The notes below the pieces were generated by a model that saw only the letters and a program-made list of their open reading frames with translations, was not told the DNA's origin and made no database searches. The position numbers were made by a program, and so were the translations under genes. Source: Altererythrobacter epoxidivorans (lineage in GTDB: Bacteria; Pseudomonadota; Alphaproteobacteria; Sphingomonadales; Sphingomonadaceae). From it: a stretch of DNA of 64,000 nt. Shown here one piece after another: positions 41,684 through 56,840 of this stretch (position 1 is the first letter of the stretch; every line of letters begins with the position of its first letter). The stretch spans positions 62,001-126,000 of the forward strand of contig NZ_CP012669.1 in NCBI RefSeq assembly GCF_001281485.1. The letters run 5' to 3'.

Positions 41684-42868
41684 TTATTCCCGGGCGCGCT
41701 GTTCCAGCAGCAGGCACGAATTCCTGTTGCCTAACTCGCAGCCTCGCCCGAGCGCGCGATAGGCTGCGTCCAGGTCGCGCGGGCCGCCTGCGCCGTTTTC
41801 GGCAATGACCGCAAGCAGCAGGCAGGCATCCGCCACGCCGCCGGTTTCGCACAGTGAGGCGTACATCTGACGGGCTAGCGGGCGGTCCTGTTCGCCGCCT
41901 TCGCCGTCGAACGCCATCTGGGCGAGGAACCCGCACGCGTCGTTGCTGCCGAGCCTGCATCCGGTCGAGAAGCGGGACCGGGCGGCGGGCAGGTCGCGCT
42001 CGGCCACGACGCCGTTGTAGAGCATCCCGCCGAGGTTGAGGCAGGCATTGCCTTCGCCCGCATCGCAGGCGCGGGTGAACAACGCGGCGGCCCCTTGCAG
42101 GTCGCGGTCTCCGGCGAGCCCGTTGAGCAGGACCATGCCGTAATTGTCGCAGCCGAAGGCCGAACCGCTCTCGCAGGACGAGCGGAGCCATTCCGCAGCG
42201 CGGGCGGTGTCTGCCGGACCGCCTTCGCCCACCATCAGCATGTAACCTGCGCTGGCGCAGGCGTTGACGCTCCCGGCTTCGCAGCTCTGGACGAACAGCG
42301 CACGGGCCGCAGGCAGGTCTGCATCCCCGCCTTCGCCGTATTTGAGCATGACCGCGCGGTTGTTGCACGAATCGACCATGCCCGCCTCGCACGCTTTTGC
42401 ATACGCGGCACGCGCCTCGACGAGATCGGCGGGATCGCCGGAATAATTGTTGTAGAGCAGTTGACCGAGATTGAAGCAGGCGCCGTCATAGCCGCCCTCG
42501 CACGCGTACCGAAAATTGCGCGCCGCCCCGGCGAGATCCTGCGGGCCGCCCGCGCCATCCTGCAGCAAGGCCCCCAGCAGGTTGCAGCCCATCATGGCGC
42601 CCTCGGCACAGGCCTTTGCGGAGAAGCGCCGGGAAAGCGCATGGTCGAGCGCGACCTCGCGCCCCTCATAGGACTTGATCGCCATCGCCATGCACGCATC
42701 CGCGTCGCGATCGTCGTCACAGGCTGCCGTCAGGCTTTCGGCGGTTTCTGCCTGAGCATGAACGGCCGGGCCGGACACCAGCCCTGACAGCATCGCGACC
42801 AGAACCAGGGCGAGCGAGGCGCGCAGGGCTTGCCTCAGGACTGCGGCGGGCGGGATGGCGACGGTCAT
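41684..42868 (-). CDS. Exported Sel1-repeat protein with paired cysteines (394 aa)
   Basis: A signal peptide (about 1-40) precedes at least nine Sel1-like helical repeats of about 36 residues, each of the form A-C-x(6-8)-C-x2-L/Y-G...G-E-G-G-x-D-L-x-x-A. The two regularly spaced cysteines per repeat recall Helicobacter Hcp proteins, where they form one disulphide per repeat. Such repeats bind proteins or peptidoglycan-related ligands. Last gene of the nine-gene exported-protein operon; 45 bases after its neighbour. Confidence 0.87.
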   Translation of the reverse strand: MTVAIPPAAVLRQALRASLALVLVAMLSGLVSGPAVHAQAETAESLTAACDDDRDADACMAMAIKSYEGREVALDHALSRRFSAKACAEGAMMGCNLLGALLQDGAGGPQDLAGAARNFRYACEGGYDGACFNLGQLLYNNYSGDPADLVEARAAYAKACEAGMVDSCNNRAVMLKYGEGGDADLPAARALFVQSCEAGSVNACASAGYMLMVGEGGPADTARAAEWLRSSCESGSAFGCDNYGMVLLNGLAGDRDLQGAAALFTRACDAGEGNACLNLGGMLYNGVVAERDLPAARSRFSTGCRLGSNDACGFLAQMAFDGEGGEQDRPLARQMYASLCETGGVADACLLLAVIAENGAGGPRDLDAAYRALGRGCELGNRNSCLLLEQRARE

Positions 42869-42913
42869 GATCGTCCTTTCGGTAGAAGCTTGGCGTGCAG
42901 GATCGGGCCGCGT

Positions 42914-44059
42914 TCAGTCGAACCGAGGTGCGCGGTGATATTCCAGCGCCATGCGGAAGGGTTCTACCGGCACGATCGCCTTGCGTTTCTCGAACACGAT
43001 CTCGCGTCCGCGTCTCCTGCGGACCTCGTATTCCTTCTCGGCGAAGCGCTCTGCGCCTGTTTCATCGAGCAGCCTGATCGTGACCGTCTCCGGTCCTGTG
43101 GACGAGGCGAGCAGGGCGGCGCTGTCCGCACGGTCGAACACGAAGCGCGCGCTGGTCGATCCGGCGGGGCCGGGCACGCGCGACCCTTCATAACTCGTCG
43201 CGCCTGCCATCAGGAATGCGCGTGCGGGAACAGGGTGTGCGTCGTACTCGCCTTTGGCGGCAGTCAAAACGAGACGGCTGTCGGTCAGCACCGCCAGTTC
43301 GAAACCGCCCTCAAGCGTCATCGCGCCCGCTGCGACCATATCTTCGCCGCGCGTTTCGTCAGGATCGCGAAAACCGGTCATTTTGTCGAAATCGGGCGCT
43401 TCGCCATCATGGAGGTAACGCAGCACGATTGTGCCGCGATAGGCCGCTGGCTTCGCGTAAATTGCTTCCATGTCCTGCGCCATGAACGTGCCGAGATGCG
43501 CGCCGGGTGCCATGAAGCTTACGGGGCTCTGCGCGGCCTGCTGGCAGTGATCTTCCAGTATTTCCGCCTGCGAAGCCATCACCTCCGCCGAGGGCGCATC
43601 TCCGCCCCGTGCCGACAGGGCCTGCCAGGCCCTTGCCGCGCGCGGGCGCAGGTGGGCGGTATCGCGCGCGCCCTTGCAGGCCGTGTCGGCGGGGAGGAAG
43701 TGGTGCAGGGCGAGCATGAATTCGCCCTGGCGGTTAAAGTAGTCGCGGATTTCGCCGAGTGCCTCGCGGCGGGGCAAATCGCCGCACGGCGCGGTGAAAT
43801 TGGGGGCGACCCGCGCCAGCAACTGGTCGTATTCGGAATCGAGGCGACCCAGCATCAACCGCCGGCGCATCTCGCGATAGACGAACTGGCCTTCGGGCGT
43901 GAAGGCATCGCACTTGCGGTCGAGCCATTCGGCCTGCGAGACCAGCGAGAACAGCTGCGCCTGCTCCGAGGGCTGCTGGGCCGACGCGGGGTAAGGGACG
44001 AGCATTGTGACGGTCGCGATGGCGCCTGCCAGTCGGCCGAGATTCTTCAAGCGGTGCAT
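42914..44059 (-). CDS. Exported protein of unknown function (381 aa)
   Basis: A signal peptide (about 1-28, ending YPASAQQ) is followed by a helical region (about 30-170) with cysteines at KCDAF, APCGDLP and ACKGA, then a beta-rich region. The C-terminal end is basic (YEVRRRRGREIVFEKRK). No family recognised. I started at 44059; the frame is open upstream but overlaps the neighbouring gene without a signal peptide. It follows the 273-residue gene by 14 bases. Confidence 0.65.
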   Translation of the reverse strand: MHRLKNLGRLAGAIATVTMLVPYPASAQQPSEQAQLFSLVSQAEWLDRKCDAFTPEGQFVYREMRRRLMLGRLDSEYDQLLARVAPNFTAPCGDLPRREALGEIRDYFNRQGEFMLALHHFLPADTACKGARDTAHLRPRAARAWQALSARGGDAPSAEVMASQAEILEDHCQQAAQSPVSFMAPGAHLGTFMAQDMEAIYAKPAAYRGTIVLRYLHDGEAPDFDKMTGFRDPDETRGEDMVAAGAMTLEGGFELAVLTDSRLVLTAAKGEYDAHPVPARAFLMAGATSYEGSRVPGPAGSTSARFVFDRADSAALLASSTGPETVTIRLLDETGAERFAEKEYEVRRRRGREIVFEKRKAIVPVEPFRMALEYHRAPRFD

Positions 44060-44073
44060 TGCGGTTTCGATCC

Positions 44074-44895
44074 TCACTGGCCGCCCCCGTTCGCGGCGCC
44101 CGGGTAGTCGTAGTGTGTTTCGCCGACGACCTGCGTTTCGGTGAACGCGACGCGGCTGATCGACAGGGCGTGGTCCGACTGCTCGAAATCGATGTTCGCA
44201 ATGCCGCCGGTCGCGCAGCAACCGGGATCGCCCTCGCGGCGCACCAGCGCAAAGGCGCTGCCCTCGCGCAGGTTGAAGCCGACCGGGCTGGCCAGCGAAA
44301 ATCCGGCAGGCAACAGGCGATCGGTCTCGCGCATGATCGCGTCGGCGCTGGTCCAGTTCCAGCCCTGGCGGCTGTTCATCAGGACGAGATCGGCATTGCC
44401 GAGCCCGCGATTGCGTGCGGGCAAGTGCAGCAGGAACCTGCCGTCGCCATCGCGCACAGCGACGGGCGCGTCGAAATACCCTTCGGTCTGGTGGGACAGG
44501 AGCAACACGGGCACCGCTCCGTCCTGCTCGATCAGCACGACCATCTCGCTCGCCGGACCGTCGTTCGGTTGCAGCGCCAGCAATTGCCAGTGCAGCGTGG
44601 TGTCGAGCGCCAGCGCAGCGATCTGCCCGCTGGCAAGGACACGGCAGTCGGCGCGCGTGCGGTACAGGCAATCGCTCGCCAGCCCCGCTGCGTATCCGTC
44701 GTCGAGATCGACCGCGCGTTCGATATCGTCGCGCGCGCAGCCGCTTTCATAGCCGCCGTCCGGGCAGACGAGGGTGTAGGGATCGTCGAACATCTCCGGT
44801 TCTTCGCCATCGATCGATCCCGGATCGGCCGATGCAGCCGTGGTCAGGCAGGCCAGCATCGTCAGGCCCGCACCGATAGTCGCTCGATAGTTCAT
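44074..44895 (-). CDS. Exported protein of unknown function (273 aa)
   Basis: Signal peptide at about 1-23 (LTMLACLTTAASAD), then an acidic mature part with repeated cysteine pairs (LVCPDGGYESGCARDD, SDCLYRTRADCRV, DPGCCATGG). The rest is beta-rich with many Leu, Asp and Gly. ATG 44895 is preceded by GAGGAG and overlaps the upstream stop as ATGA. No family recognised; likely periplasmic and disulphide-bonded. Confidence 0.65.
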   Translation of the reverse strand: MNYRATIGAGLTMLACLTTAASADPGSIDGEEPEMFDDPYTLVCPDGGYESGCARDDIERAVDLDDGYAAGLASDCLYRTRADCRVLASGQIAALALDTTLHWQLLALQPNDGPASEMVVLIEQDGAVPVLLLSHQTEGYFDAPVAVRDGDGRFLLHLPARNRGLGNADLVLMNSRQGWNWTSADAIMRETDRLLPAGFSLASPVGFNLREGSAFALVRREGDPGCCATGGIANIDFEQSDHALSISRVAFTETQVVGETHYDYPGAANGGGQ

Positions 44896-45452
44896 GGATC
44901 GCTCCTCACGCGTTCGCAGGCCGGGCGGAAACGCAGTTCGCACGCCCGGCGATAGCCTTCCTGTGCCTTGGCGGGATCAGCCTCGGTCATCCCGCGCCCT
45001 TCCTCGACCATGCTGGCGGCGCGGAAGCAGTTGCGGCCGCCATAGCTGTTCTGGCAAAGCCACAGGTAGATGCCGAGCGCGCCGGGATCGTCGACTGCTC
45101 CGCCTTCGCCGTTCACCAGCGCATCGGCATAGTTCTGGCAGGATTCAAACAGTCCGCCATCGCACCCCTTGCGGAACGCTGCGCGGCCATCGATCATGTC
45201 GGGTACGCCGCCTTCGCCCGTCATCGCCATCACCCCGTAATTCTGGCAGGCGGTGGCATCGCTGTCCTCGAAACAGAGGCCGCGCAGGATCGGGCGCGCC
45301 TGATCGGGCAGACCCAGCCGCATGAATTGTCGCACGCTCTCGCGATCCTGCTCGATCGCCTGATCGTCCCGTTGGCCCGACGCCTGCGCAGCAAGCGGCA
45401 CGCCGGCGGCGAGGCAGCCAAGGGTGGCCAGGCCGAGGAAAAATCGTCTCAT
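44892..45452 (-). CDS. Exported Sel1-repeat protein with paired cysteines (186 aa)
   Basis: A signal peptide (about 1-24) precedes about three Sel1-type repeats with two cysteines each: GLCFEDSDATACQNYGVMAM, GCDGGLFESCQNYADAL and RACELRFRPACERV. ATG 45452 overlaps the upstream stop as ATGA; an ATG six bases earlier is also possible. A shorter relative of the proteins at 41684 and 46060. Confidence 0.8.
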   Translation of the reverse strand: MRRFFLGLATLGCLAAGVPLAAQASGQRDDQAIEQDRESVRQFMRLGLPDQARPILRGLCFEDSDATACQNYGVMAMTGEGGVPDMIDGRAAFRKGCDGGLFESCQNYADALVNGEGGAVDDPGALGIYLWLCQNSYGGRNCFRAASMVEEGRGMTEADPAKAQEGYRRACELRFRPACERVRSDP

Positions 45453-46060
45453 TTGCATATCGCGAGATATTCCATCAGCGTGCCTAGGCCGCCCTGTTCG
45501 CTATTGGCATAGGCTGCGTAGAGTTCGTCGGCCTTTTCTGCCGCCTTGGCCTCTTCCTTGCCCAGTCTTCCGACGTCCGCCGCATCGTCCAGCTGGCGCA
45601 CGGCTTCGTCCCGCCAGAAGGGCTCGCGCGCGGCTGCGTTCGCGGCGGACAGTTCCGGGCGCAGCGCCGAGACGAACAACGGATCGGCCGCGGTTTCGAC
45701 CGCATAGTTCCAGCGATTCCAGACGGCAGCGCACAGCAGCCGCTCGTCGGTGGTCTGCGGCGTCAGGCCCCACTGCGTACCGGCTTCGAACGTAGCATTG
45801 TGCGTGGCAGCGTCGACCATGCCGGGCGACGGTTCGCACGGGTCTCCGCGTTCGGCGCGCTGCTCCTGCTCCCTTGCCCAGGCGAGTTCCTGCTCGGACA
45901 CCGGACGGGCGGCAGGCCCGCCCAGACTGTTGAGGACGATTTCGGTCCGGCGGAACTCGCACAGCTGGACGTGGCGCTGGTCGGCGGAAGGCTCTGCGTC
46001 GGTCTGCTGCGTGCCGGCAATGGCCGCCAGGGTAAGGGCGTATGTGGCGAGTGCCAGCAT
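45449..46060 (-). CDS. Exported protein of unknown function (203 aa)
   Basis: Signal peptide about 1-16, then an alpha-helical mature protein with scattered cysteines (QLCEFRRTE, GDPCEPSPG, RLLCAAVWNRW, and Cys202 in the penultimate position). The region about 85-140 (NATFEAGTQWGL ... ERLLCAAVWNRWNYAVE) looks like a compact helical domain. The ATG shares one base with the upstream stop (TAATG). No family recognised. Confidence 0.62.
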   Translation of the reverse strand: MLALATYALTLAAIAGTQQTDAEPSADQRHVQLCEFRRTEIVLNSLGGPAARPVSEQELAWAREQEQRAERGDPCEPSPGMVDAATHNATFEAGTQWGLTPQTTDERLLCAAVWNRWNYAVETAADPLFVSALRPELSAANAAAREPFWRDEAVRQLDDAADVGRLGKEEAKAAEKADELYAAYANSEQGGLGTLMEYLAICK

Positions 46061-47175
46061 TACGCACCGACCTGCTGCGCCAGCGTGCAGCCATCCTGGA
46101 TCCCGAGCTTGCAGCCGAGCCCGAAGAGGCGCTTGGCTGCGGCAGGATCGGCTGCGCCGCCCTGACCGTCACGCGCCATGAACCCGGCGTTCATGCAGGC
46201 TCCAGCATTGCCGGTGTTGCACGCTTGCGTAAAGCTGCTGCGCGCGCCAGGTCGGTCTTGCGCGATGCCCGAGCCGGAATATTGCGCCAGGCCGTATTCG
46301 AGGCACCCGTCTGACTTGCCCGCCTCGCATGACAGCTTAAACGACTTCGCCGCACCAGCGGCATCGACCGGACCGCCGCGACCGTCGCGCTGGAGCAGCG
46401 CGAGGGCGTAGCATCCGTCCGTTGCAAGGCCCGGGCAAGCGCTGGTGAAATATGTGCGCGCCTTGGCATAGTCCGGGCCGCTGCCGACCGAACCGTAAAA
46501 GTAACTCGCACCAAGATCGTAGCAAGAGGCCGCGAAACCCGCCTTGCAGGCGGTAGTCAGCGGGGCGATCGCGCCCTCGTGGTCCTCAGCACCGCCCTCC
46601 CCATTTTTCAGCATCGATCCGTAAATCTTGCAGGCTTCGCCCACGTTCAGGGCGCAGCCTCGCTGGTAGGCCCGGCGCGAAAGCGGCAGGTCGGTGCTGC
46701 CGCCTTCACCGTCGTACGTCATCGCACCGAGGTTGGTGCAGGCCGCGCCGTTGCCTTCTGTGAAACACCCTGTGTCGTAACGCGAACGCGCCGTTGTGAA
46801 GTCGCCGCTATTGTAGGCCGCCTGGCCTTTCATCGCTGCGCTGTCGCCGCCGGCCTCGACCACCCTGGGTCGGTTTGCCGCAGCAGGTGCGGCAGCGGTT
46901 TGCGTCTTGGCTGTTGCCGGAGCTTTTGCATCTGCCTCTGAGCAGGGCTTTCCGGCATTCTTGACCTGCTCGTAACGCAGCGCCCAGCCGATTTCGTCGT
47001 CGCTGACGCGCCGCTTGGTGGGGCTGGAGCTGTTGAGGTTGGCGAAGATGTCGTCGTACTTGGCCTTGCACGCCCGCTCGGTGGCCGAGCTGCGGTCGAC
47101 CTGCGCCATCGTGGCTTGCGGTCCGGCAAGGAACAGGCTGGTCATCACGGCAGCGGCGATTGCGAAGTTCTTCAT
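46060..47175 (-). CDS. Exported Sel1-repeat protein with paired cysteines (371 aa)
   Basis: Signal peptide (about 1-24), a short helical part with KACKAKYDDIF-like cysteine, an Ala/Thr/Pro linker (about 80-105), then six or more Sel1-type repeats with regular cysteine pairs (for example GCFTEGNGAACTNLGAMTYD and GCALNVGEACKIYGSML). The Hcp-like layout implies a rigid, disulphide-locked superhelix in the periplasm. Start 47175 gives a clean signal peptide; upstream open frame is antisense to nothing coding-like. Confidence 0.85.
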   Translation of the reverse strand: MKNFAIAAAVMTSLFLAGPQATMAQVDRSSATERACKAKYDDIFANLNSSSPTKRRVSDDEIGWALRYEQVKNAGKPCSEADAKAPATAKTQTAAAPAAANRPRVVEAGGDSAAMKGQAAYNSGDFTTARSRYDTGCFTEGNGAACTNLGAMTYDGEGGSTDLPLSRRAYQRGCALNVGEACKIYGSMLKNGEGGAEDHEGAIAPLTTACKAGFAASCYDLGASYFYGSVGSGPDYAKARTYFTSACPGLATDGCYALALLQRDGRGGPVDAAGAAKSFKLSCEAGKSDGCLEYGLAQYSGSGIAQDRPGARSSFTQACNTGNAGACMNAGFMARDGQGGAADPAAAKRLFGLGCKLGIQDGCTLAQQVGA

Positions 47176-47188
47176 TGGGGCCTCGTGT

Positions 47189-48340
47189 CTATTGGCAAAC
47201 GGGATGGCTGCTCGAAAGGCGGCGGGAGCCGGTGCAGTTGTTGAAGCGGTATCGGTCGCGGGTCTGCTTCGCGATGTCGGCGCTGCTGGGCGTGGACACC
47301 GGCTGGAAGGACGAACCGGAACTGCGCGGAGTGTAGCTCGACCCGCTCGACCCGCGCTGTGCCTGCCAGCGGGCGGAACTTGCTCCGGGCATGTTCGTGC
47401 AGTTCCAGATGCCGCACTCGTTGCTACGCTTGTTGCGGGCGATCTGCGACGCTGCGATCTGTGCCACCGGACCGGACGGGAACCAGTATTCGAGCACGTA
47501 GAAGTGGTCTTCGAAGATGGTCGAAAGCGCGCCCGCGCGCGATGCGGCGAGGGTCGCTTCCTCGGCATGGCGCTTCGACCGCATGTGATAGAGCGAGTAA
47601 TAGAGCGCCCCGTCGTAGTCGCGGCGCGCCATGTAGCGGTCGAACACCGCCTGCTCCTGCGCCTCAGCCTGCATCCGGGCATTGCGGGCTGCGTCGATCG
47701 CCGCCTGCCGCTCGGCTTCCGCCTGGTGCCGGAGCGATTGGAGTCGCGCGCCGAACGCGCACACTTCCGCGCTGGCCGGATCGTCGGGCATGCAGGCGCT
47801 GAGCGCGATCTGCTCGGCCGGAAGCCGGTCGTCGAGCGAATAGAGAATGCGGGCAAGGTCGATGCACGAGCGGCGATTTCCCGCGCTGCAATTGACCCGG
47901 CGGTAGCGGAGCGCCCTTTCGGCATCGAACTGGGGCGATCCCGGCTCGGCGAAGACCGCCTCGGCGACTTCGCAGCCGTCGCGGTCCTGCCCGCTGCACG
48001 CCTGCACGGCGAAGTTGCCTGCGCTGGCAAGGTCGCGTTCGACATCGCCTTCGCCAGCGTAGAAGATCAGCGCGAGCCGTCCGCATGCCGCAGCCTCTTT
48101 GGCGGTGCAGGCCTGTTGCAGGAAGCGCAGGCTAAGGAACGGGTCGTAGGCTGGATTGTCCACGTCGGACAACAACATCCCCGCGCGCGAACAGGCCGCG
48201 CGGTCCCCCGCTTCGCAGCGGGCTGTGGCCTGCGCCAGGTCGCCGCCACCCTGTGCCGAGGTGCCGGTCGTGGGCGCCAGCGCTGCCACGGCCAGCGCGA
48301 CCAGGATGCCGAGACGGCGCATCACCCGCTTCACCGGCAT
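47189..48340 (-). CDS. Exported Sel1-like protein with coiled-coil and Ser-rich tail (383 aa)
   Basis: Signal peptide (about 1-28), then three or four degenerate Sel1-type repeats with cysteine pairs (ARCEAGDRAACSRAGM, QACTAKEAAACGRLA, CSGQDRDGCEVAEA, NCSAGNRRSCIDLAR). A coiled coil rich in Glu, Ala and Gln follows (about 200-235), then a Ser-rich tail with SSGSSYTPRSSGSS and a terminal Cys-pair region. Start 48340 overlaps the upstream stop by ten bases; ATG 48322 is a non-overlapping alternative. Confidence 0.75.
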   Translation of the reverse strand: MPVKRVMRRLGILVALAVAALAPTTGTSAQGGGDLAQATARCEAGDRAACSRAGMLLSDVDNPAYDPFLSLRFLQQACTAKEAAACGRLALIFYAGEGDVERDLASAGNFAVQACSGQDRDGCEVAEAVFAEPGSPQFDAERALRYRRVNCSAGNRRSCIDLARILYSLDDRLPAEQIALSACMPDDPASAEVCAFGARLQSLRHQAEAERQAAIDAARNARMQAEAQEQAVFDRYMARRDYDGALYYSLYHMRSKRHAEEATLAASRAGALSTIFEDHFYVLEYWFPSGPVAQIAASQIARNKRSNECGIWNCTNMPGASSARWQAQRGSSGSSYTPRSSGSSFQPVSTPSSADIAKQTRDRYRFNNCTGSRRLSSSHPVCQ

Positions 48341-49218
48341 TTCACGATCCGCGAGCCCGCGATGCCCGGTTCTGCCGGACGATAGATCACCTCGCATGAC
48401 TTGCCGAGCGATCCGACCGGCTTGGCGTTCGCCTGCTGCGCCTGCCGTGCGCGATCTGCCGCCGCGCGCTCGGCCCAGCGCTGGCCTTCGTCCTGCGTTT
48501 GCTTTTTCGCACGCAGGCGGCGCATGTATTCGTCGAAAATCAGCCGCGTCGCGGGCGGATTGTACTGCCAGTAATGCTTGGTCGCGATGGTGTAGACGGC
48601 TTCGTCGCTGAGGCCGCGCACGCCGTTCTTGCCGAGCTTGACGATCAGCTCGCCCAGATAGTCGCCATCCTCGTTCGGCTGGAACAGGTCCTTGCCGTAG
48701 GGATAATGATAGACGAGGTAATCGGCGACCGCGCCGGGATCGCCGGTCTGGTCGACATAGGCGCGCAGTGATGCGGCGGACAAAGTGCCGAGCGCGTTGA
48801 GATCGCGTTGCACATGTGCCTGAGCGGTGGTCGCGGCCTGCTGCTGTTTCATCTGCTCGGCCTGGACGTAGAGATCGGCGCAATCCTGCGCAGTCTCCAG
48901 TACGTAGGCTTCAAGCCCGGACTGGCCGCGCTGTTCGCGCACCTGCGTCCAGAACCGCCGCGTTTCGGCATCGGCGCTGTCCTCTGCGGCAAGGCTGCCG
49001 CCGGTCAGGGATATGAAGTGATCGATCACGAAATCGGACGTGACGGGCAGCTTCATGCCCTTGCTTTCCGCGACATTGAGCGCGGCGGCGCATTCCCAGA
49101 TCTCGTCGGCGTCATCCTCTGCGCCATTCGCAGCCAGCGACGTTGGCAACGCGAGTGCGAGGCCGATGGCAAGCGCCGAGGCAGTGCTGGCGCGATGCGG
49201 GAAGGCCGCCGGTCGCAT
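48331..49218 (-). CDS. Exported protein with C-x4-NVAES domain (295 aa)
   Basis: Signal peptide (about 1-31), then a domain with Cys43, the word NVAES at 48-52 and Cys113. The next gene upstream has the same word with its cysteines also exactly 70 residues apart. The middle is helical, the part near 190-225 reads VRGLSDEAVYTIATKHYWQY, then a charged coil (RLRAKKQTQDEGQRWAE) and a C-terminal cysteine pair. ATG 49218 overlaps the upstream stop as ATGA. Unknown function. Confidence 0.68.
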   Translation of the reverse strand: MRPAAFPHRASTASALAIGLALALPTSLAANGAEDDADEIWECAAALNVAESKGMKLPVTSDFVIDHFISLTGGSLAAEDSADAETRRFWTQVREQRGQSGLEAYVLETAQDCADLYVQAEQMKQQQAATTAQAHVQRDLNALGTLSAASLRAYVDQTGDPGAVADYLVYHYPYGKDLFQPNEDGDYLGELIVKLGKNGVRGLSDEAVYTIATKHYWQYNPPATRLIFDEYMRRLRAKKQTQDEGQRWAERAAADRARQAQQANAKPVGSLGKSCEVIYRPAEPGIAGSRIVKCR

Positions 49219-49639: not shown

Positions 49640-49655
49640 CAGGAAGATGACAAAT
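49640..49655 (-). promoter_or_regulatory. Candidate response-regulator site, copy 1
   Basis: CAGGAAGATGACAAAT here, and CAGGAAAGTGACAAAT at 56899-56914, both lie about 60-75 bases before a minus-strand start codon of the same cluster and in the same orientation. On the minus strand it reads as TGTCA-N6-TGTCA, an 11-base direct repeat such as OmpR/PhoB regulators bind. Confidence 0.55.
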
Positions 49656-49787
49656 GCTGTCATGCACCGGTGACGGTGCCCTGCCGCCCGTCGTCCCGCG
49701 ATCCTAACAGCACTTGTAACGGGTCAATCGGGCCGCTCCGCGCTATTTCCCCGATCGCGACCCGGCGGCCTTCGGGCCGTACTCCTT

Positions 49788-49891: not shown

Positions 49892-50569
49892 ATGAAGATC
49901 TTGTATGTCGAGGACGACCTGCGCGCAGCAGAAGAGGTCAAGCAGCTCGCCTGGCAGGAAGGCGACACGATCGTGGTCGAAACCAATGGCAGCGACGGGC
50001 TGAAACGCGCGGGGCTGGAACCGTTCGACGTCATCATCATGGACCGGATGCTGGGCGATGCCGATGGCCTGTCGCTGGTCGGGCGGTTGCGCGAAAGCGG
50101 GGTCAGTACGCCGGTGCTGATGCTGAGCGCGCTCGGCCGCACGAGCGACCGCGCCGAAGGGCTGGAAGCGGGAGCAGACGATTATCTCGCCAAGCCGTTC
50201 GAGGCGATGGAATTGCTTGCCCGCATCCGTGCGCTGCATCGCCGTGCGGCAGGGCGGGAACACAGCGCGGTCATCCTGTTCGGTGCGTTCGAATGTCACG
50301 TGAAGGCGCGCACCGCATTCCGCGACAATCGCCACATCGCGCTGAGCCCGCGCGAGTTCGAGCTGTTCCGCTATTTCATGGAAAATGCGGGCGAGGTGGT
50401 GACCCGCGAAATGCTGCTGCGCGACGTGTGGAATATGTCGTTCGATCCGCAGACCAACGTCGTCGACGTCAATGTCGGTCGCCTGCGCCGCAAGCTGGAA
50501 GAAGGCTTCGACAGCCCGGCGCTCGAAACCGTCTGGGGCGCGGGATACCGCCTGTTGCAGGGGCGCTGA
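49892..50569 (+). CDS. OmpR/PhoB-family response regulator
   Basis: A 225-residue regulator: receiver domain (about 1-118; MKILYVEDD, phospho-acceptor Asp51 in IIMDRMLGD, and Lys102-like AKPFE) and a winged-helix DNA-binding domain (about 130-222; LSPREFELFRYFMENAGEVV, NVVDVNVGRLRRKLEEG). ATG 49892 is preceded by AGGTGG; ATG 49850 would add 14 residues. It pairs with the downstream kinase and probably controls the flanking exported-protein operons. A broken relative lies at 41328-41563. Confidence 0.93.
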   Translation: MKILYVEDDLRAAEEVKQLAWQEGDTIVVETNGSDGLKRAGLEPFDVIIMDRMLGDADGLSLVGRLRESGVSTPVLMLSALGRTSDRAEGLEAGADDYLAKPFEAMELLARIRALHRRAAGREHSAVILFGAFECHVKARTAFRDNRHIALSPREFELFRYFMENAGEVVTREMLLRDVWNMSFDPQTNVVDVNVGRLRRKLEEGFDSPALETVWGAGYRLLQGR

Positions 50570-50572
50570 ACC

Positions 50573-51907
50573 ATCCTTTCGCCACGCTCCATATTCACCC
50601 GGATCGTACTGCTATCGGCGCTGTTGTCGTCGGTCCTGCTGCTGGGCCTGTGGTGGATCACCGACCAGACGATCTGCGAAACCTTCGCCGCCTCCGCGCG
50701 CGAAAGCGTCGATGTCGATCTGGCCGGTCTGGCGGACATCCATGCAAGTGGTGGACGCGAGGAGCTGGAACGCCGCATCGCCGATCGCCTCGCCATGATC
50801 CCGACCGATGGCGGCAGGCCGCACTACCTGCTGGCCGATGGGGCGGGGCGCAAGCTGGCGGGAGACCTCGCGCGCTGGCCGGACCTCGACCCGGCGATCT
50901 CCGAAAGCGGGACGATCGCGATCGGATCGAACTCGACCGCCTTTGGGCGAGCGACCTTGCTCGACGAAGACCTGCGTCTGCTCGTGGCGCACGAGCCGCC
51001 CGACCGTTCGGAGATCCTGCGTCGGGTCGGCTGGGTGTTCCTGCTGGGCGGAGTGGTCTTCGTCGCCTGCACTGCCGTGTTCGCTCAATCGGCCAGCGCG
51101 CGCGTGCGGGCGCGGGTCGGCCGTGTGAACGAAGCGTTCCGGCAAGGCGACGAAGCGGCGCTCGACCGGCTGGCAGCACCCCGGCGGCCCGATGAGATCG
51201 ACCGCATCGCCAGCCAGGCCGCCGAAGCGGTGCGGCATGCGCGGAACCTGATGCAGGCCTATCGCGAGACGTCGGAGCAGATCGCGCATGAAATCCGCAC
51301 CCCGCTCATGCATCTCGATTCGCGCATCGTGAAGGCCCTGGCAAAGCAGCCCGATGCGACCGCGAGCGCTCATCTGGTCGAGGCGCGATCAGACATCCGG
51401 CGGCTGGTAGCCTCGCTCGAAGCGCTGCTCGATATTGCTTCGAGCAAGGCGCAGGTGGGCGATACGAGAGGCATGGTGACGGTCGACTTTAGCGCACTTG
51501 TCGAGCAGATTTGCGAACTATATCAGGATAGTGCCGAAGAGGCCGGGTATGCCTTGCGATGGAATGTGACGCCTGGCGTCGCGATCGCCGGGGATGAAGC
51601 GCAATTGGGGCGGATCGTGACCAACCTTCTCGACAACGCGTTCAAGTACAACCGGCCCGGCGGGGTTATCGAGGTCACCATCCAGCCCGGCCCGCGCCTC
51701 GTGGTGAGGGACGAAGGACCAGGTGTTCCGCCCGATGAGCGCGAGAAGGTGTTCGAACGGTTCTATCGCAGGCGCGCGGCCAGTAGCGAGGTCCAGGGCA
51801 GTGGCATGGGCCTGGCCCTCGCGCGCGCCATTGCTGAGCGGCACGGGCTGTCCCTGGTGCTGGAAGACAGCGCCAGCGGCGCGCAATTCGTCCTGGCCCG
51901 CGCATGA
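50573..51907 (+). CDS. Sensor histidine kinase, apparent ATC start
   Basis: With the start at 50573 the protein has 444 residues: N-terminal span (about 8-30), a periplasmic sensor region (about 31-150) without known domain, second span (about 155-175), HAMP-like linker, H-box SEQIAHEIRTPLMHLD (His239), N-box NLLDNAFKYN, G1 DEGPGVPP and G2 GSGMGLALA. No ATG, GTG or TTG lies before the first span; ATC 50573 follows AGGGG by nine bases and the regulator stop by three. The first canonical start, TTG 50624, would cut the span in half. Confidence 0.88.
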   Translation: MLSPRSIFTRIVLLSALLSSVLLLGLWWITDQTICETFAASARESVDVDLAGLADIHASGGREELERRIADRLAMIPTDGGRPHYLLADGAGRKLAGDLARWPDLDPAISESGTIAIGSNSTAFGRATLLDEDLRLLVAHEPPDRSEILRRVGWVFLLGGVVFVACTAVFAQSASARVRARVGRVNEAFRQGDEAALDRLAAPRRPDEIDRIASQAAEAVRHARNLMQAYRETSEQIAHEIRTPLMHLDSRIVKALAKQPDATASAHLVEARSDIRRLVASLEALLDIASSKAQVGDTRGMVTVDFSALVEQICELYQDSAEEAGYALRWNVTPGVAIAGDEAQLGRIVTNLLDNAFKYNRPGGVIEVTIQPGPRLVVRDEGPGVPPDEREKVFERFYRRRAASSEVQGSGMGLALARAIAERHGLSLVLEDSASGAQFVLARA

Positions 51908-52512
51908 GCGGAAGCAGTGCTCCTCGATCGGCGCTGCGAGCCGCTGCGCTGGGCGCGTTCGTCCTTGTTTCGGCGGGATGCAGCGGCACGCCCGCTGAGC
52001 GACCGGGACAGAGCGCTTCTGCGCCGGCCAGCCTCACCAGCACGGAGCGGCTGGCGGATGATCTGGCTGAAGCCAGCCTTGCATACGACAATGGCGACCT
52101 CTCCGAGCTGACCGTTCGCCTGCGTGCGATCGAACTGGCCGGGGCGCAGCCATCGGATGAGCCGGGGCAAGCTGCGCTTGTCGCATGGAGGGGTGTCGTC
52201 CCGCCAGGCGACATCCCGTTGCGCGGGCGGGTGCTCGGCCCGGCCTATCTCACCGGCACGCTGGCTGCGGGGGCCGAAATCGATACCGAACAGCTGCTGA
52301 TGGGCGGGCAATCCGTCAGCATCGCGGCAGGCACCGCTCCGCGTAAAGGCTTGCGCCTGCGCGTCTTGCGCGGGGACGGCAAGATGGTGTGCGAACAGAC
52401 GCCCGCCCATGCGCGCGAATGCCGCTTCGTGCCGTCCTACACGCAAAGATACCGGATCGTGTTGCAGAATACGGGCACAGGGGAGGCGCGTTATCACATC
52501 GTTTTCGACTAG
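51904..52512 (+). CDS. Lipoprotein of unknown function in the CHAT operon
   Basis: A 202-residue lipoprotein: signal with lipobox VSAGC (Cys at about 26), a Ser/Pro/Ala linker, a helical stretch (about 48-80) and a beta-rich C-terminal domain with RGRVLGPAYLTGTLAAGAEI and two cysteines (MVCEQTP, ARECRFVP) that could form a disulphide. Its start overlaps the kinase stop as ATGA; its end overlaps the likely CHAT start by 20 bases, so the three are coupled. A sensor ligand or an anchor for the CHAT protein is an inference. Confidence 0.68.
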   Translation: MSGSSAPRSALRAAALGAFVLVSAGCSGTPAERPGQSASAPASLTSTERLADDLAEASLAYDNGDLSELTVRLRAIELAGAQPSDEPGQAALVAWRGVVPPGDIPLRGRVLGPAYLTGTLAAGAEIDTEQLLMGGQSVSIAAGTAPRKGLRLRVLRGDGKMVCEQTPAHARECRFVPSYTQRYRIVLQNTGTGEARYHIVFD

Positions 52513-55450
52513 GCGGCTGCTGCTTGCCGGGGCCGGGGGATGGGTACTGGCGTTCGCGTCGCCGACGGCAGTTGCTGCGCAGGAAGCGGGCAGCCCCTAT
52601 TCGACCGACCTTCCCCAATTCGCGCATCTGCGCGCGCTGGAAGACCGTGCGACCGACCTCCAGCAGAACGGGGCGCAGGACGCGGCGGGTCGGGCTGCGA
52701 TCATCGCGGCGTGGCGCGATTTGCAGATTGCGGCGCAGCGCACGACCATGCCGGACGGGTCCGTCCATCCGCTCGCTCAGGTGGTGCGCATCAAGATCGC
52801 CTCGCAGCTCTACGCCGATGGCCAGATCGACGAGGCCCTCGCCGAAGTCGAGCCGGGTCTGGAGGCCACCCGACCCTATCTCGACGAATATCCCGCTGCG
52901 ATGGCAGAAGGGGCTGCGCTGCTCGGCGTGTTGCTGACGCACAAGGGAGAGCCCGAGCGGGCACTGGCCCTTGTCGAGCCGCTCTATGCCGATTTCGCCG
53001 AACTGGCCGCACGGGAAGACAAGGAAGGGCTTGCGGTAGCGAAGTCGAACCTCGAATTTTCGCTGTCGCAGATCAATCTCCGCCTCGGCCAGACCGCCGA
53101 AGCGTTGCGATACCAGAAGGCGAGCCTCGACAGCCGCGAGGCTGCATTCGGCCCGAACCATCCGGACACGGTGGCGGGCTATTACGGCTATGCACAGACC
53201 CTCCGCCGGGCGGGGCAGATGGAGGAAGCGGAGCGGTTCGCCCGTATCGCTGTGGAGCGTGCCACCGGCCACGTCGATCCGTCGCACCCGTCCTATGCCC
53301 GCTCGCTGGAGATGCTCGGCATCGTGCTCGCAAATTCGGGCAGGCCGATCGAGGCGACCGATTTCCTCACGAGCGCGCTCGAGCTCAAGCGCGAATACGA
53401 GGGCGCCGACACGCTCGTGTTCGGATATGGCATCCACAATCTCGGCACGATCCTGTTGCAGCGCGAGCGTTACGAGGAAGTGCAGCCGCTCTTCAACGAA
53501 GCCGAAGCGCTGATGTCGCGCTATCAGGGGCCAGCCAGCGCATTCCCGATCCTGGCTCTGGCGTATAACGGACAGGCGTCGCTGGCGCTGGGCGATCCCG
53601 CGCAGGCGGTGCGCCTGCTGGACGAAGGCCGTCAGCGGATGGGCGACGACACGCAGGATGTCGAGGCGCTCGGCCGTCTCCTGCCGGACCTCATCCGCGC
53701 CCACTTGCTGCTGGGCGACCCGGCGAGTGCGCTCGCCCGCGCGGAGCTGTTCGAAGAGCGCATTCTGGCGAGCGACACCACGGACACGTTCGAGGTTGCC
53801 TTCGCCACGCTGTTGCGCGCGCATTCGCAGGTGGTGGCTGGCGCGGGGCGGGAGGAGGAGCGGAAGCTGGCGGCGCGCAATCTGATCGAAGCCGTGCGGC
53901 ATCCGGGCCGGTTCGACCGCGCATCCGGGCTTGAAGTGCGGCATCTCAGCGCGCTCGACCTGGTCATGGATATTGCCGCGGAAGACGACGATGCCGAGCT
54001 GATGCTGGCGGCGATGTCGCTGGTCAGCCGCTCCCACTTGTCTCGCGCTCAGGCGATCCGCACCGAGCGCCTTGCTGCCTCGGACCCGGGTCTGGCGGAC
54101 CTGCTGCGGGCGCTGCGCGAAGCGGAAGATGCGGTCGACGAGGCCGATCGCGCGCTGCTGCTGGCGCTCGCCCGCGGTGAATCGGCCGATCTCCTGCGCG
54201 AAAGCCTGGCTGCCGCGCGAGCGCAGGCGGCGGCGTATCGCGACCAGCTCGCCGCGCGCTATCCCGGATGGGACCGCGCGCTGGAGCAGACGCCCTCGAT
54301 AGCGGCATTGCAGGCAAGCCTTGCCGATGGCGAAGCAATCCTGTCGTTCGCGCCGATCTATTACGGCACCTATGCGCTGCTCGTCACGCCCGACACTGCC
54401 GTCGCGCTGGATCTGTCCGCGAGCCGCAAGTCGGTGATCGACCTCGCCAACAGTCTCGGGGCGAGCGTGCGTGTGGGCGGGTTCGACGGCCCCGCTTCGC
54501 GCGGCCTCGGTGCCAGCCTGTTTCCGGAGCCGGTGATGGAACGGCTGGCGAAGACGCGGGCGCTCAAGCTTCACACTGGCGGCCCGCTCGCATCCCTTCC
54601 GTTCTCGCTGCTGCAAGGTTGGGGCGGCGGGGCCGACACCGCGTTTCTGCACGACAGGTTCGCGCTCAGCTATCTGTCGGACCTCAGCGTGGAAGGCGCA
54701 TCGCCGACACTTCCGGGCGAACGGGACGCGCCGCTGTCGCTGGTGGCGTTCGCCGCACCCGCGCCGTTCGGTGCCGCCGGCGCGAGCGAGGACGCCGTGC
54801 CGCAGCGCAGCCCTTCCCGCATCAGCGACTATTTCGATCGCGCCGCCGCTAACGCCGATGCGCTCGCCAGCCTGCCCGCTCTCCCCGGCACCGCCGATGA
54901 AGTGCGCGCGATTGCTGCATCGATATCGTGGGACACGGAGACCCTGTTCCTTGCCGAGGATGCCAGCGAAGCAAACTTCCGCAGCGCACAGGCGAGCGAA
55001 GCCGACGTGCTGGTGATCGCGACCCACGGGATCGTTGCGGGCGAGGTAGAAGGCATTGCCGAACCTGCGCTGGTGCTGTCGCCCGGCGCACCGGGCGGTG
55101 ACGACGGTCTTCTGACGGCTGGGGAAATCGCGCGACTGAGGCTGGTGGCGGACTGGATCATTCTGTCTTCCTGCGACAGCGCAGCGGGGATGAGCGGCGG
55201 CCTGCCCGCGTTTTCCGGCCTCACGCAGGCGTTTCGCCAGGCGGGCGGGAAGGATCTGCTGGTCACGCACTGGAAAGTGCGCGACGACATCGCTGCCTAT
55301 GTCAGCACGCAGGCGGTGCTCAATTATCGCAGCGGCATGACCAAGGCCGAAGCCCTCCGCGCGGCGATAGACAGTCTGCGCAAGGAAAGCGGGATCACCG
55401 GCGCGGATGAGCCGTTCGCGTGGGCGCCGTTCGTGCTGATCGAAGGCTGA
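52493..55450 (+). CDS. Exported TPR-CHAT caspase-like protein, apparent ATC start
   Basis: From ATC 52493 the protein has 985 residues. It begins with a twin-arginine-like signal (TSFSTRRLLLAGAGG ... AVAAQ). TPR repeats fill about 60-520 (ALRYQKASLDSREAAFGPNH, GYYGYAQTLRRAGQMEEAER), a coiled coil follows (about 535-600), and a CHAT protease domain closes the protein (about 690-985) with His845 in IATHGIV and Cys894 in ILSSCDSAAG. ATC follows AGGGGAGG by six bases; the nearest ATG (52409) lies far inside the lipoprotein gene and gives no signal peptide. An exported CHAT protein is unusual. Confidence 0.88.
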   Translation: MTSFSTRRLLLAGAGGWVLAFASPTAVAAQEAGSPYSTDLPQFAHLRALEDRATDLQQNGAQDAAGRAAIIAAWRDLQIAAQRTTMPDGSVHPLAQVVRIKIASQLYADGQIDEALAEVEPGLEATRPYLDEYPAAMAEGAALLGVLLTHKGEPERALALVEPLYADFAELAAREDKEGLAVAKSNLEFSLSQINLRLGQTAEALRYQKASLDSREAAFGPNHPDTVAGYYGYAQTLRRAGQMEEAERFARIAVERATGHVDPSHPSYARSLEMLGIVLANSGRPIEATDFLTSALELKREYEGADTLVFGYGIHNLGTILLQRERYEEVQPLFNEAEALMSRYQGPASAFPILALAYNGQASLALGDPAQAVRLLDEGRQRMGDDTQDVEALGRLLPDLIRAHLLLGDPASALARAELFEERILASDTTDTFEVAFATLLRAHSQVVAGAGREEERKLAARNLIEAVRHPGRFDRASGLEVRHLSALDLVMDIAAEDDDAELMLAAMSLVSRSHLSRAQAIRTERLAASDPGLADLLRALREAEDAVDEADRALLLALARGESADLLRESLAAARAQAAAYRDQLAARYPGWDRALEQTPSIAALQASLADGEAILSFAPIYYGTYALLVTPDTAVALDLSASRKSVIDLANSLGASVRVGGFDGPASRGLGASLFPEPVMERLAKTRALKLHTGGPLASLPFSLLQGWGGGADTAFLHDRFALSYLSDLSVEGASPTLPGERDAPLSLVAFAAPAPFGAAGASEDAVPQRSPSRISDYFDRAAANADALASLPALPGTADEVRAIAASISWDTETLFLAEDASEANFRSAQASEADVLVIATHGIVAGEVEGIAEPALVLSPGAPGGDDGLLTAGEIARLRLVADWIILSSCDSAAGMSGGLPAFSGLTQAFRQAGGKDLLVTHWKVRDDIAAYVSTQAVLNYRSGMTKAEALRAAIDSLRKESGITGADEPFAWAPFVLIEG

Positions 55451-55454
55451 TCGC

Positions 55455-56840
55455 CTATTCGAACCTGTCGCGATTGGCGCGGCGCAGGAATTCGGCCATT
55501 TCCGGCGTCAGCTTGCGCATCTCTTCCGCCTTTTTCTCGTAGGCATAGGCATTGGGTACCTCGACCCGGCCGCTGTCGGTCCCCTGACCGGCGCGGTACA
55601 TGGCGGCGGCCTGCACGGCCCCGTCCAGCTCCCCGTGCTCCGCGGCGCGCTTGAACATTTCGAGCGCGAGCTTGTCGTCGCGCGCCACGCCGCGTCCTTC
55701 GCGCAGGGCATACCCCGCGGTCAGCTCTGCCGGGCCGTATCCCTCCATCGCCGCCTTGGCGATGAATTCGAAGCCGCGCGCATGGTTGGCCGGGATGTTC
55801 TTGCCGGCAAGCAGTTCGAACCCGACATCGTTCGCAGCGATCACGCTGCCATTGTCTGCGGCCCGCTTCATGTAGAACACGAACTTGTCCGCATCCTTGG
55901 CCAGCCCGGTGTGCCCGTCGAGGTAGAGCGCTCCGAGCTTGCGGCTCGCGAGGATATCCCCGCGCATCGACAGCTCGACTAGGATTTCGAGTGCCTTTTC
56001 GGTGCTCTGGGGCAGCAGCCATTGTGCGCCAAGGTTGGTGAGCAGCGCCTGATAGCTTTCATCGTCGGAAGTGGCTGCGCTCGACTTCTTTGTGACGCGG
56101 GTGCCATAGGGTAGCTGCACACCCGTGAGGTAGGCAGCGGCCAGCGTATGCGCGGCCTTGTCTCCCGGCCTCAGGCGACCGGCGGTGGTCAGTTCGATTG
56201 CCTTGGCCAGCGCCTGCGCTTTCTCCTCGCGATAGGCGGCGGCGCGCTCCTCACCCTTGCCGTCGGCGATCTTCCAGCGATCGGTGCGCTTGAAGTCGAC
56301 TTCGTATTCGCCCCGGTCGACGCAGAAGCTGCAATGCGCCGGATCGAGCACGATCCGCAGGTAACCGGCCAGCGCGTCGCGATTGCCGAGTTCGGCACCC
56401 TGCTCGAAATAGGACAGCGCCTCGCTGCGGTCGCGCTCGCGCCTCATCTTGGTGTAGTAGTCGGGCGATTCCGCGATCTCGCCCACGCGCAGGAAGGCCG
56501 TGCCGTCGCCCTGCTCCATCGCCATCGCATAGTATTTGAGCATGTTGCTCACGATCGCATCGCTCGACCAGATTTCTCCGAGGATATCGTCCCGGATGCG
56601 GTCGGCGAAGGCGATCTGCGCAGAGGCTTTGCCTCCGTCCGCTTCAGCCTTGAGCGCCTGCACTTCCGGGTCGGCATACCACGCCTTCACCCGTTTCTCC
56701 GACGCCGCCAGCGCTTCGGCGGATTGCTGTTCCAGCATCGCGTAGGTCGGTGGGCCATTGTCCTGCTGTGCAGCGGCATTGGTGGCCGAGAGCAGCGCGG
56801 GCAGTAGCGCCACAGAGACGCACGTTAGGGTTCTGGGCAT
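55455..56840 (-). CDS. Exported Sel1-repeat protein (461 aa), convergent with the CHAT gene
   Basis: Signal peptide about 1-24 (ALLSATNAAAQ), then Sel1 repeats in two blocks (about 60-170 and 270-440; for example ASRKLGALYLDGHTGLAKDA and ELTAGYALREGRGVARDDKL). Unlike its relatives at 41684-47175 the repeats lack paired cysteines; the only cysteines after the signal sit in HCSFC. The stop is four bases from the CHAT stop. ATG 56840 has GGAAG upstream, and the cluster motif lies at 56899-56914. Confidence 0.85.
   Translation of the reverse strand: MPRTLTCVSVALLPALLSATNAAAQQDNGPPTYAMLEQQSAEALAASEKRVKAWYADPEVQALKAEADGGKASAQIAFADRIRDDILGEIWSSDAIVSNMLKYYAMAMEQGDGTAFLRVGEIAESPDYYTKMRRERDRSEALSYFEQGAELGNRDALAGYLRIVLDPAHCSFCVDRGEYEVDFKRTDRWKIADGKGEERAAAYREEKAQALAKAIELTTAGRLRPGDKAAHTLAAAYLTGVQLPYGTRVTKKSSAATSDDESYQALLTNLGAQWLLPQSTEKALEILVELSMRGDILASRKLGALYLDGHTGLAKDADKFVFYMKRAADNGSVIAANDVGFELLAGKNIPANHARGFEFIAKAAMEGYGPAELTAGYALREGRGVARDDKLALEMFKRAAEHGELDGAVQAAAMYRAGQGTDSGRVEVPNAYAYEKKAEEMRKLTPEMAEFLRRANRDRFE

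What the first reader, a model, noticed from the sequence alone, without database searches (positions are those of the whole stretch)
41684..56840. Candidate new envelope system: two-component switch, exported TPR-CHAT protease and a set of disulphide-paired Sel1 proteins
Seen: nine overlapping or tightly spaced minus-strand genes (41684-49568), every one with a signal peptide, three or four built from Sel1 repeats with two cysteines each, next to a divergent response regulator, kinase, lipoprotein and exported CHAT gene, and a further exported Sel1 gene convergent with CHAT. Known: CHAT proteases are caspase-like and are usually cytosolic effectors activated by partner proteins (for example in Craspase); Sel1 and TPR scaffolds bind proteins. 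Inferred: a periplasmic damage or invasion sensor that activates a caspase-like protease on repeat-protein scaffolds, switched on by the two-component pair. Six further exported proteins in the cluster have no known family.
Basis: partly seen in the sequence, partly recalled or inferred. Interest (0 to 1): 0.9.

Follow-up and report, generated by a model that had tools for sequence, protein, structure and literature searches.

The report
Two-component switch controlling exported caspase-like protease
In sphingomonad bacteria a two-component switch with its own DNA binding box appears to turn on a set of exported proteins, including a caspase-like protease and cysteine-stapled repeat proteins, which points to an undescribed stress or surface response that uses a protease outside the cytoplasm.

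Summary
The genes are there, and the cluster is a real unit. Its core is a response regulator, histidine kinase and lipoprotein (RR-HK-LP): 40 of 40 Sphingomonadales genomes with a strong LP match (own included) have RR and HK beside it; 22 of 40 also have a TPR-CHAT gene close by. I found a binding-site-like box (TGACAANNNC[CT]GTTA) at the RR/Sel1 divergent promoter, before the convergent Sel1 gene and before a truncated RR copy. In ten held-out loci 11 of 11 boxes lie upstream of module genes. Three fetched homologue loci of the Cys-rich Sel1 or g8/g9 genes outside their modules all carry the box. A congener fuses Cys-paired Sel1 repeats to TPR-CHAT. So RR probably drives an envelope regulon in which CHAT and Hcp-type Sel1 proteins work together. 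Proteolysis, substrate and signal are inferred. The closest working analogue is the ExoR-ExoS-ChvI switch with JspA and LppA; no protein tested passes its models. In this strain HK, and perhaps CHAT, lack a normal start codon.

The parts
49645..49663 (+). RR box 1 (AGATGACAAATGCTGTCAT) in the g9/RR divergent promoter; a further TGACA unit lies 11 bp upstream
   Evidence: PWM 26.3 with window sites left out, but orthologous to training sites; conserved in the alignment of relatives' promoters
49704..49722 (-). RR box 2, opposite strand, RR side of the same promoter
   Evidence: PWM 20.1; same double arrangement in L032, L033, L034, L068
56904..56922 (+). RR box upstream of the convergent Sel1 gene
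   Evidence: PWM 20.7; one of two exact matches of TKACAANNNCNGTTA in the whole 2.79-Mb genome, both in this cluster; box at the orthologous gene in L055 (23.6)
41609..41627 (-). RR box upstream of the truncated RR copy
   Evidence: PWM 18.8; the null gives 7 hits >=18 in 100 simulated windows, so this one is the weakest
49892..50569 (+). OmpR-type response regulator (RR)
   Evidence: Response_reg and Trans_reg_C; 46-91% identical in module loci
50573..51907 (+). sensor histidine kinase (HK), probable ATC start
   Evidence: HATPase E 5e-23; start-codon survey; alignment A3
51904..52512 (+). lipoprotein (LP) with C-terminal PPC/GOLD-like beta sandwich
   Evidence: alignment A1, AlphaFold2 pLDDT 86, Foldseek against PDB
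52493..55450 (+). exported TPR-CHAT peptidase homologue; start ATC 52493 or ATG 52409 uncertain; motifs ATHG and SSCDS
   Evidence: CHAT E 2e-39; motifs and Cys count; start
55455..56840 (-). Sel1R: exported Sel1-repeat protein convergent with CHAT, few Cys
   Evidence: Sel1 E 1e-14; 48% identical orthologue in the same place in Erythrobacter donghaensis
49218..49568 (-). g9, small exported protein, 2 Cys ('NVAES' type)
48331..49218 (-). g8, exported, 4 Cys, 'NVAES' type
   Evidence: homologues in only 5 of 396 order genomes, all with the LP family
47189..48325 (-). g7, exported, Cys-paired repeats (4 pairs plus more Cys)
46060..47175 (-). g6, exported Hcp-type Sel1 protein, 7 Cys pairs
45449..46060 (-). 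g5, probably exported, no family
44892..45452 (-). g4, exported Hcp-type Sel1 protein, 4 Cys pairs
44074..44895 (-). g3, exported, no family
42914..44059 (-). g2, exported, no family
41684..42868 (-). g1, exported Hcp-type Sel1 protein, 10 Cys pairs
   Evidence: Sel1 E 2e-20; PDB 1ouv E 5e-31 and 1klx (Cysteine Rich Protein B) E 3e-13, best match 4bwr E 1e-31
41171..41563 (-). RR': truncated response-regulator copy, probable remnant of a second module
   Evidence: 75% identical over 63 residues to the E. donghaensis module RR; own RR box upstream

Best explanation
This is an envelope-response regulon with its own switch. Step 1 (inferred): HK, with lipoprotein LP as its likely helper, senses a condition in the periplasm. 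Step 2 (well supported by sequence, binding not tested): phosphorylated RR binds a TGACA-type direct-repeat box and turns on its own operon (RR-HK-LP-CHAT), the divergent nine-gene operon of exported Cys-rich Sel1 (Hcp-type) and companion proteins, and the convergent Sel1 gene; in other genomes copies of the same genes outside the module carry the box. Step 3 (supported by homology): the products are exported; the Hcp-type proteins are stapled by disulphides, while CHAT keeps a single cysteine, the catalytic one, as fits an oxidising compartment. Step 4 (inferred, helped by a natural Sel1-TPR-CHAT fusion): CHAT docks on or processes the Sel1 proteins. Other genomes put a different exported cargo (FAMX, a giant repeat protein and a Slam-like outer-membrane protein) under the same switch, so CHAT is probably the common processing enzyme of an interchangeable surface set.
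For: RR+HK beside LP in 40 of 40 strong LP genomes; CHAT near LP in 22 of 40. Box: four window hits >=18 at the cluster's promoters against 7 in 100 simulated windows; 11 of 11 boxes in ten held-out loci upstream of module genes, one of the ten having no box; strict pattern 22 matches in 18 genomes, control (pattern read backwards) 0. Homologue loci outside the module, of g9-g8 (L146), g7/g6 (L147) and a Cys-rich Sel1 gene (L148): 3 of 3 fetched have a box just upstream of the first gene; in a survey of 566 upstream regions 16 had a box >=18, of which only L061's lies outside the window and the loci picked by box or homology. Fusion in L065, 1 of 53 CHAT frames. CHAT joins or leaves the module at least 8 times on a supported tree. 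Hcp-type Cys pattern, PDB matches, motifs and Cys count of CHAT.
Against: No biochemistry. CHAT is absent from the fetched stretch around LP in 18 of 40 genomes and present without the module in 21 of 40 fetched CHAT loci, so neither needs the other; in 15 of those 18 genomes I fetched 17 CHAT loci elsewhere and none has a box >=17. The Sel1 operon is one clade's cargo; g8 occurs in only 5 of 396 genomes. L146's box (18.1) is near the noise, and an equal hit (18.6) lies inside a gene of the same locus. Our own genome has no match to the strict pattern. Off-module boxes also precede aroQ-like and dcd-like genes. Training sites were picked by eye. Signal peptides rest on a rough rule. CHAT lost the ancestral ATG in this strain and XHP0207, HK has no normal start, and E. 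longus HK lacks its middle, so parts may be weakly expressed or decaying.
Confidence: 0.6

Rival explanations
1. ExoR-type switch: one exported Sel1 protein (most likely Sel1R or g1) binds and silences HK; CHAT, helped by LP, destroys it under stress; RR then turns on CHAT and, as feedback, the Sel1 genes.
For: Same part list as S. meliloti ExoR (periplasmic Sel1 inhibitor), ExoS-ChvI, JspA protease and LppA lipoprotein, with exoR itself under ExoS-ChvI feedback (PMC10659215: abstract, introduction, discussion and passages; PMC3460628 passages). RR box upstream of Sel1R here and at its orthologue in E. donghaensis.
Against: Most modules have no Sel1 gene nearby (12 of 52 have one) yet keep RR-HK-LP; g1 scores 32.9 against a cut-off of 450 for ExoR, HK 93.8 against 740 for the Caulobacter ChvG model; nine linked genes are more than an inhibitor needs.
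Confidence: 0.2
2. Exported effector island: CHAT and the Hcp-type proteins leave the cell and act on competitors, grazers or hosts; the two-component pair only times their release.
For: The cargo is exported; alternative cargo sets include a Slam-like outer-membrane protein and giant repeat proteins; Helicobacter Hcp proteins are secreted (recalled; 1ouv is named 'conserved hypothetical secreted protein'); the locus sits near what looks by eye like a conjugation region.
Against: I saw no outer-membrane translocon among the annotated genes of the Sel1-type cluster; boxes elsewhere precede small predicted lipoproteins (L149, L151, L156), which points to envelope upkeep.
Confidence: 0.17
3. Neighbours only: an inherited island without functional linkage.
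For: The full Sel1-type layout is shared mostly by related Erythrobacteraceae.
Against: Shared box, including genes outside the module; shuffled gene orientations with kept adjacency; repeated recruitment of different CHAT lineages.
Confidence: 0.04
4. Cytosolic defence system of the Craspase or gasdermin kind.
For: TPR-CHAT architecture; weak PADLOC hit to BovA, E 0.001.
Against: Signal peptides, Cys-stapled partners, no other PADLOC match among the ten proteins scanned.
Confidence: 0.03

Closest known systems
ExoR-ExoS-ChvI (RSI) switch with JspA protease and LppA lipoprotein (Sinorhizobium, Agrobacterium)
   Same: two-component pair, periplasmic Sel1 protein, lipoprotein, envelope protease, feedback on the Sel1 gene
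   Different: protease is a CHAT cysteine-peptidase homologue, not the metalloprotease JspA; Sel1 proteins are Cys-stapled and several; the genes form one locus with a private box; HK is not ChvG and g1 not ExoR by model score
TPR-CHAT (Csx29) of Craspase
   Same: TPR plus CHAT with His-Cys dyad
   Different: Craspase partners an RNA-guided effector (PMC9729208 and others, starts of abstracts in a listing only); here a signal peptide and a two-component operon
Helicobacter cysteine-rich proteins (HcpB, HcpC)
   Same: Sel1 repeats with one close Cys pair each, exported
   Different: several in one operon, under a two-component box, linked and in one case fused to CHAT
Proteobacterial dedicated sortase system (NCBIfam TIGR03785 kinase; what the system does is recalled)
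   Same: two-component pair dedicated to one surface-processing enzyme and its cargo (recalled)
   Different: CHAT instead of sortase; HK scores 71 against a cut-off of 612

Membership tests
CHAT peptidase family (PF12770) | profile match over cut-off | tested here: met
   136.6 bits, cut-off 24
CHAT peptidase family (PF12770) | catalytic His and Cys present | tested here: met
   ATHG and SSCDS by pattern; comparable motifs in 50 of 50 CHATs looked at; which residues are catalytic is recalled
CHAT peptidase family (PF12770) | proteolytic activity | not testable with these tools
   none
ExoR-ExoS-ChvI switch | Sel1 protein is an ExoR equivalog | tested here: not met
   g1 32.9 bits against 450; g6, g7 and Sel1R no match to the model; g4 none
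ExoR-ExoS-ChvI switch | kinase is ChvG/ExoS | tested here: not met
   93.8 bits against 740 for the Caulobacter ChvG model; best model cztS_silS_copS 130 against 292.55
ExoR-ExoS-ChvI switch | Sel1 protein binds and inhibits the kinase and is removed by proteolysis | not testable with these tools
   none
Hcp-type Sel1 proteins | two Cys per about 36-residue repeat, spaced 8-9 | tested here: met
   g1 10 pairs, g6 7, g4 4, g7 4
Hcp-type Sel1 proteins | sequence similarity to solved Hcp structures | tested here: met
   g1 to 1ouv E 5e-31, 1klx E 3e-13; g4, g6, g7 not tested
Craspase (type III-E CRISPR) | Cas7-11/gRAMP partner and CRISPR array nearby | tested here: inconclusive
   no such partner among the 20 window proteins given to Pfam; the rest of the window and CRISPR arrays were not searched
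PPC domain family (LP) | fold of the C-terminal domain | tested here: met
   PPC domain 5sv5 E 1e-4, also GOLD domains (7rrm E 3e-6) and other sandwiches, TM-score by query about 0.4
PPC domain family (LP) | sequence profile match | tested here: not met
   no such Pfam match, no PDB sequence match below E 0.6

The most novel reading that the evidence does not exclude
A caspase-like signalling protease that works outside the bacterial cytoplasm: a private two-component regulon that makes a single-cysteine TPR-CHAT peptidase in the periplasm together with disulphide-stapled Sel1 adaptors that recruit its substrates, with the cargo set exchangeable between species while switch, lipoprotein and protease stay.
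Probability: 0.3. Interest if true: 0.88.

Novelty: new variant of a known kind. Interest (0 to 1): 0.72.

Why it matters
CHAT proteases are best known as cytosolic executioners or immune effectors (recalled). Here a large set of exported CHATs comes with a defined promoter box, a cognate switch, partner candidates and a natural fusion, so the question of what bacterial exported caspase-like proteins do becomes directly testable in culturable marine bacteria. It would also show a second envelope circuit with the same kinds of part as the ExoR switch, built from unrelated or only distantly related proteins.

Tried and rejected
Cytosolic defence reading: PADLOC gave one weak hit among ten proteins. 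ChvG/ExoR membership: not met. Genome-level LP-CHAT co-occurrence (45 of 47 LP genomes have a CHAT hit against 89 of 396 overall) is strong, but I do not lean on it where the genes are apart: 17 such CHAT loci from 15 genomes carry no box >=17 (the CHATs of G123, G171 and G273 were not fetched), and the count ignores kinship. In five of those genomes (G123, G171, G197, G273, G375) CHAT and LP lie on one contig 25-35 kb apart, which I did not pursue. Sel1 against FAMX exclusivity (12 and 25 of 52 loci, overlap L143, p 0.0017; L055 counted as Sel1 from Pfam; one of the 52, L132, is cut by a contig end before RR and HK) also ignores kinship. An HK sensor model (A3) had not returned. VIA-align was not available. 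LP family beyond the order: 2 weak matches besides our own among 385 class genomes. g7 has 30 of 396 weak-to-strong matches at E<=1e-5; most are general Sel1 similarity and were not followed, and L148 was chosen from them as the best weak match in an LP genome. Papers: nine of ten searches used; in those listings of the held library I saw no paper on this cluster or on an exported CHAT with a two-component pair. PMC10907252, which mentions CHAT and periplasm, was not read.

My own slips: I first took codon 52490 as a GTG start for CHAT; it is GTT (found). Alignment A3 starts one codon after the probable HK start.
Full report
1. Observation. The window lies at bases 62001-126000 of a 2.79-Mb single-contig genome. 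The nearest named record found is Qipengyuania sp. XHP0207 (L125; Sphingomonadales), 98.4% identical over 15.6 kb of the cluster. Domains: Sel1 in g1, g6 and Sel1R, weakly g4; CHAT plus TPR; OmpR-type RR; HK. Four proteins carry cysteine pairs spaced 8-9 residues with a 36-residue period (g1 10 pairs, g6 7, g4 4, g7 4), the pattern of Helicobacter Hcp proteins (recalled); g1 matches 1ouv (HcpC, name recalled) at E 5e-31.

2. Core module. I searched 396 order genomes with CHAT (89 with E<=1e-20), fetched 40 of the listed hits, mostly the best-scoring, and read their flanks: 19 of 40 have RR, HK and LP within the 20-kb stretch (18, plus L071 by HMM), with CHAT downstream, convergent or divergent. 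Searching with the LP alignment A1, itself built from such loci, gave 47 of 396 genomes, 40 of them strong; the 7 weak ones were not examined. RR and HK flank LP in 40 of 40 (30, ten more); CHAT lies in the fetched stretch in 22 of 40 (21; G111 from coordinates). In the class sample of 385 genomes only two others had weak LP matches. The module occurs in our own family (f1) and in a second family of the order, f8 (L041, L044). On a tree of 50 CHATs the module label needs 9 changes, 8 forced by well-supported branches: different CHAT lineages have joined or left the same switch. In Tsuneonella RR is 91% identical to ours but CHAT only 28%.

3. The regulatory box. Aligning the RR/g9 intergenic regions showed a conserved triple direct repeat (TGACA-N6-TGACA-N5-TGTCA in our window). 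A 19-base matrix from 17 sites of other loci (picked by eye) finds in the window 49645 (26.3), 56904 (20.7), 49704 (20.1) and 41609 (18.8); 100 simulated windows give 7 hits >=18, 2 >=19 and none >=20 in total. These are the promoters of the two divergent operons, of Sel1R and of the truncated RR copy. 49645 is orthologous to training sites; the other three are not. In the whole genome the pattern TKACAANNNCNGTTA matches exactly twice, both in the cluster; with one mismatch 24 more, two of them in the cluster, and the backward control 54, so one-mismatch hits mean little by themselves.

4. Tests of the box. In 38 module loci 38 non-training sites >=18 were found, 31 of them within 330 bp upstream of a module gene and 35 upstream of some gene; in ten held-out loci 11 of 11 (L131 has none; L126 is a near copy of a training locus); in 22 control CHAT loci 2 sites, one upstream of a Slam-like gene and one inside a gene. 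The boxed genes include RR, FAMX, Slam-like, CHAT when divergent, the Sel1 operon and the Sel1R orthologue. A blind test: g8 homologues exist in 5 of 396 genomes and g7 homologues with E below 1e-99 in 4 of 396 (30 of 396 at E<=1e-5); all of these strong ones are LP genomes. I fetched three copies that lie outside the module: L146 (g9-g8, about 0.5 Mb away), L147 (g7/g6-like, about 1.5 Mb away) and L148 (a weaker Cys-rich Sel1 gene in G197, about 17 kb from its LP). All three have a box just upstream of the first gene (18.1, 28.7 and 25.7; for L147 the called start is probably too far in). L146's score is near the noise, and an equal hit lies inside one of its genes. In 566 surveyed upstream regions 16 had a box, and only L061's lies outside the window and the loci picked by box or homology. 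A strict pattern gives 22 matches in 18 module genomes and 0 for the backward control; four of the 18, ours included, have none. Twelve are in modules, two are L146 and L147; of the other eight, four precede predicted exported or lipoproteins (L149, L151, L153, L156; L149 and L151 at the same chromosomal place in two genera), two precede aroQ-like genes at the same place, one a dcd-like gene, one a 302-residue protein (gene names by eye).

5. CHAT. ATH[GA] and C[DNE][ST] motifs are present in 50 of 50 CHATs; a rough rule finds a signal peptide in 46 of 50 (25 of 28 module, 21 of 22 control). It missed our own, which by eye reads ITSFSTRRLLLAGAGGWVLAFASPTAVAAQ. In 38 of 50 the last 900 residues hold exactly one Cys, at the catalytic place. 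L065, from a congener without the LP family, is one 1436-residue protein with a hydrophobic N-terminus, eight Cys pairs in its Sel1 region, TPR_12 and CHAT: 1 of 53 CHAT frames.

6. LP. The model (pLDDT 86) has three helices and an eight-stranded sandwich; among the best PDB matches are GOLD domains, a pre-peptidase C-terminal domain (5sv5), C-terminal parts of secreted subtilases and the periplasmic lysozyme inhibitor PliG, E 3e-6 to 1e-3, TM-score by query about 0.4. Two Cys of this domain are invariant in 18 of 18. No sequence match to a PPC family.

7. Cargo. By profile, 12 of 52 module loci have Sel1 genes and 25 of 52 FAMX, with one overlap, L143. FAMX ends in an SH3_3-like domain (E 4e-4, below cut-off). 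The Slam-like protein passes a TPR cut-off and matches TPR_Slam (E 2e-5) and an outer-membrane barrel below theirs; the giant repeat proteins have no informative Pfam match. The f8 locus L041 has three Sel1 genes next to CHAT, two flagged as exported by the rule, without Cys pairs.

8. Mechanism. Shown by sequence: module, box, export signals (rough), Cys pattern, fusion. Inferred: RR binding, the envelope signal, LP as helper of HK, CHAT activity and substrate. The nearest worked-out circuit is ExoR-ExoS-ChvI with JspA and LppA, in which a protease and a lipoprotein together lower a periplasmic Sel1 inhibitor and ExoS-ChvI feeds back on exoR (PMC10659215: abstract, introduction and discussion read, other passages by term; PMC3460628 and PMC4550343: passages only). 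It works with the same kinds of part, but g1, g4, g6, g7, Sel1R and HK do not pass its models.

9. Verdict.

Noticed in passing
50570-50624; L032, L033, L034, L064, L066, L068, L125, L126, L128-L130, L134, L135: At 14 of 58 RR-HK junctions (some are the same genome twice) no ATG, GTG or TTG lies within -15 to +25 of the RR stop; ATA sits exactly at the usual -3 overlap (ATAA/ATAG) in three lineages and ATC nearby in the window and others. Suggests a conserved non-canonical, low-yield start for the kinase. Six of the 14 have a GTG at -42 inside RR as an alternative.
   Followed up: partly
52484-52500: CHAT start: five relatives have ATG, the window and XHP0207 have AGG there, creating GGGGAGG before an ATC codon; an ATG 84 bases upstream inside LP is the alternative.
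   Followed up: partly
41171-41563: Truncated response-regulator copy with its own box, closest to the E. donghaensis module RR; with Sel1R it looks like the remains of an older module interrupted or replaced by the present one.
   Followed up: partly
L127 9096-9947: Erythrobacter longus HK lacks residues 149-304 relative to ours, including the invariant His of the phospho-acceptor region, while the rest of the cluster is kept.
   Followed up: no
L065 10207-14514: Natural fusion of Cys-paired Sel1 repeats, TPR and CHAT in one protein.
   Followed up: yes
L150 and L152 around 5001-5017: RR box conserved in the same intergenic region upstream of an aroQ-like gene in two congeners; target unclear.
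   Followed up: no
L149 5089-5586 and L151 4432-4920: Small predicted lipoproteins with a box 80-89 bp upstream at the same chromosomal place in two genera: likely regulon members outside the module.
   Followed up: no
794-18505: A long run of minus-strand genes, many exported or membrane-bound, that reads by eye like a conjugation (F-type) transfer region, followed by metal-efflux and CopA-type genes up to 40 kb (only the CopA-type and DUF305 genes were checked).
   Followed up: no
56989-57459: C-terminal fragment of a dihydroxy-acid/6-phosphogluconate dehydratase beside Sel1R, also in XHP0207.
   Followed up: no
30517-30614: tRNA-Glu prediction overlapping a called coding region, probably spurious.
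   Followed up: no
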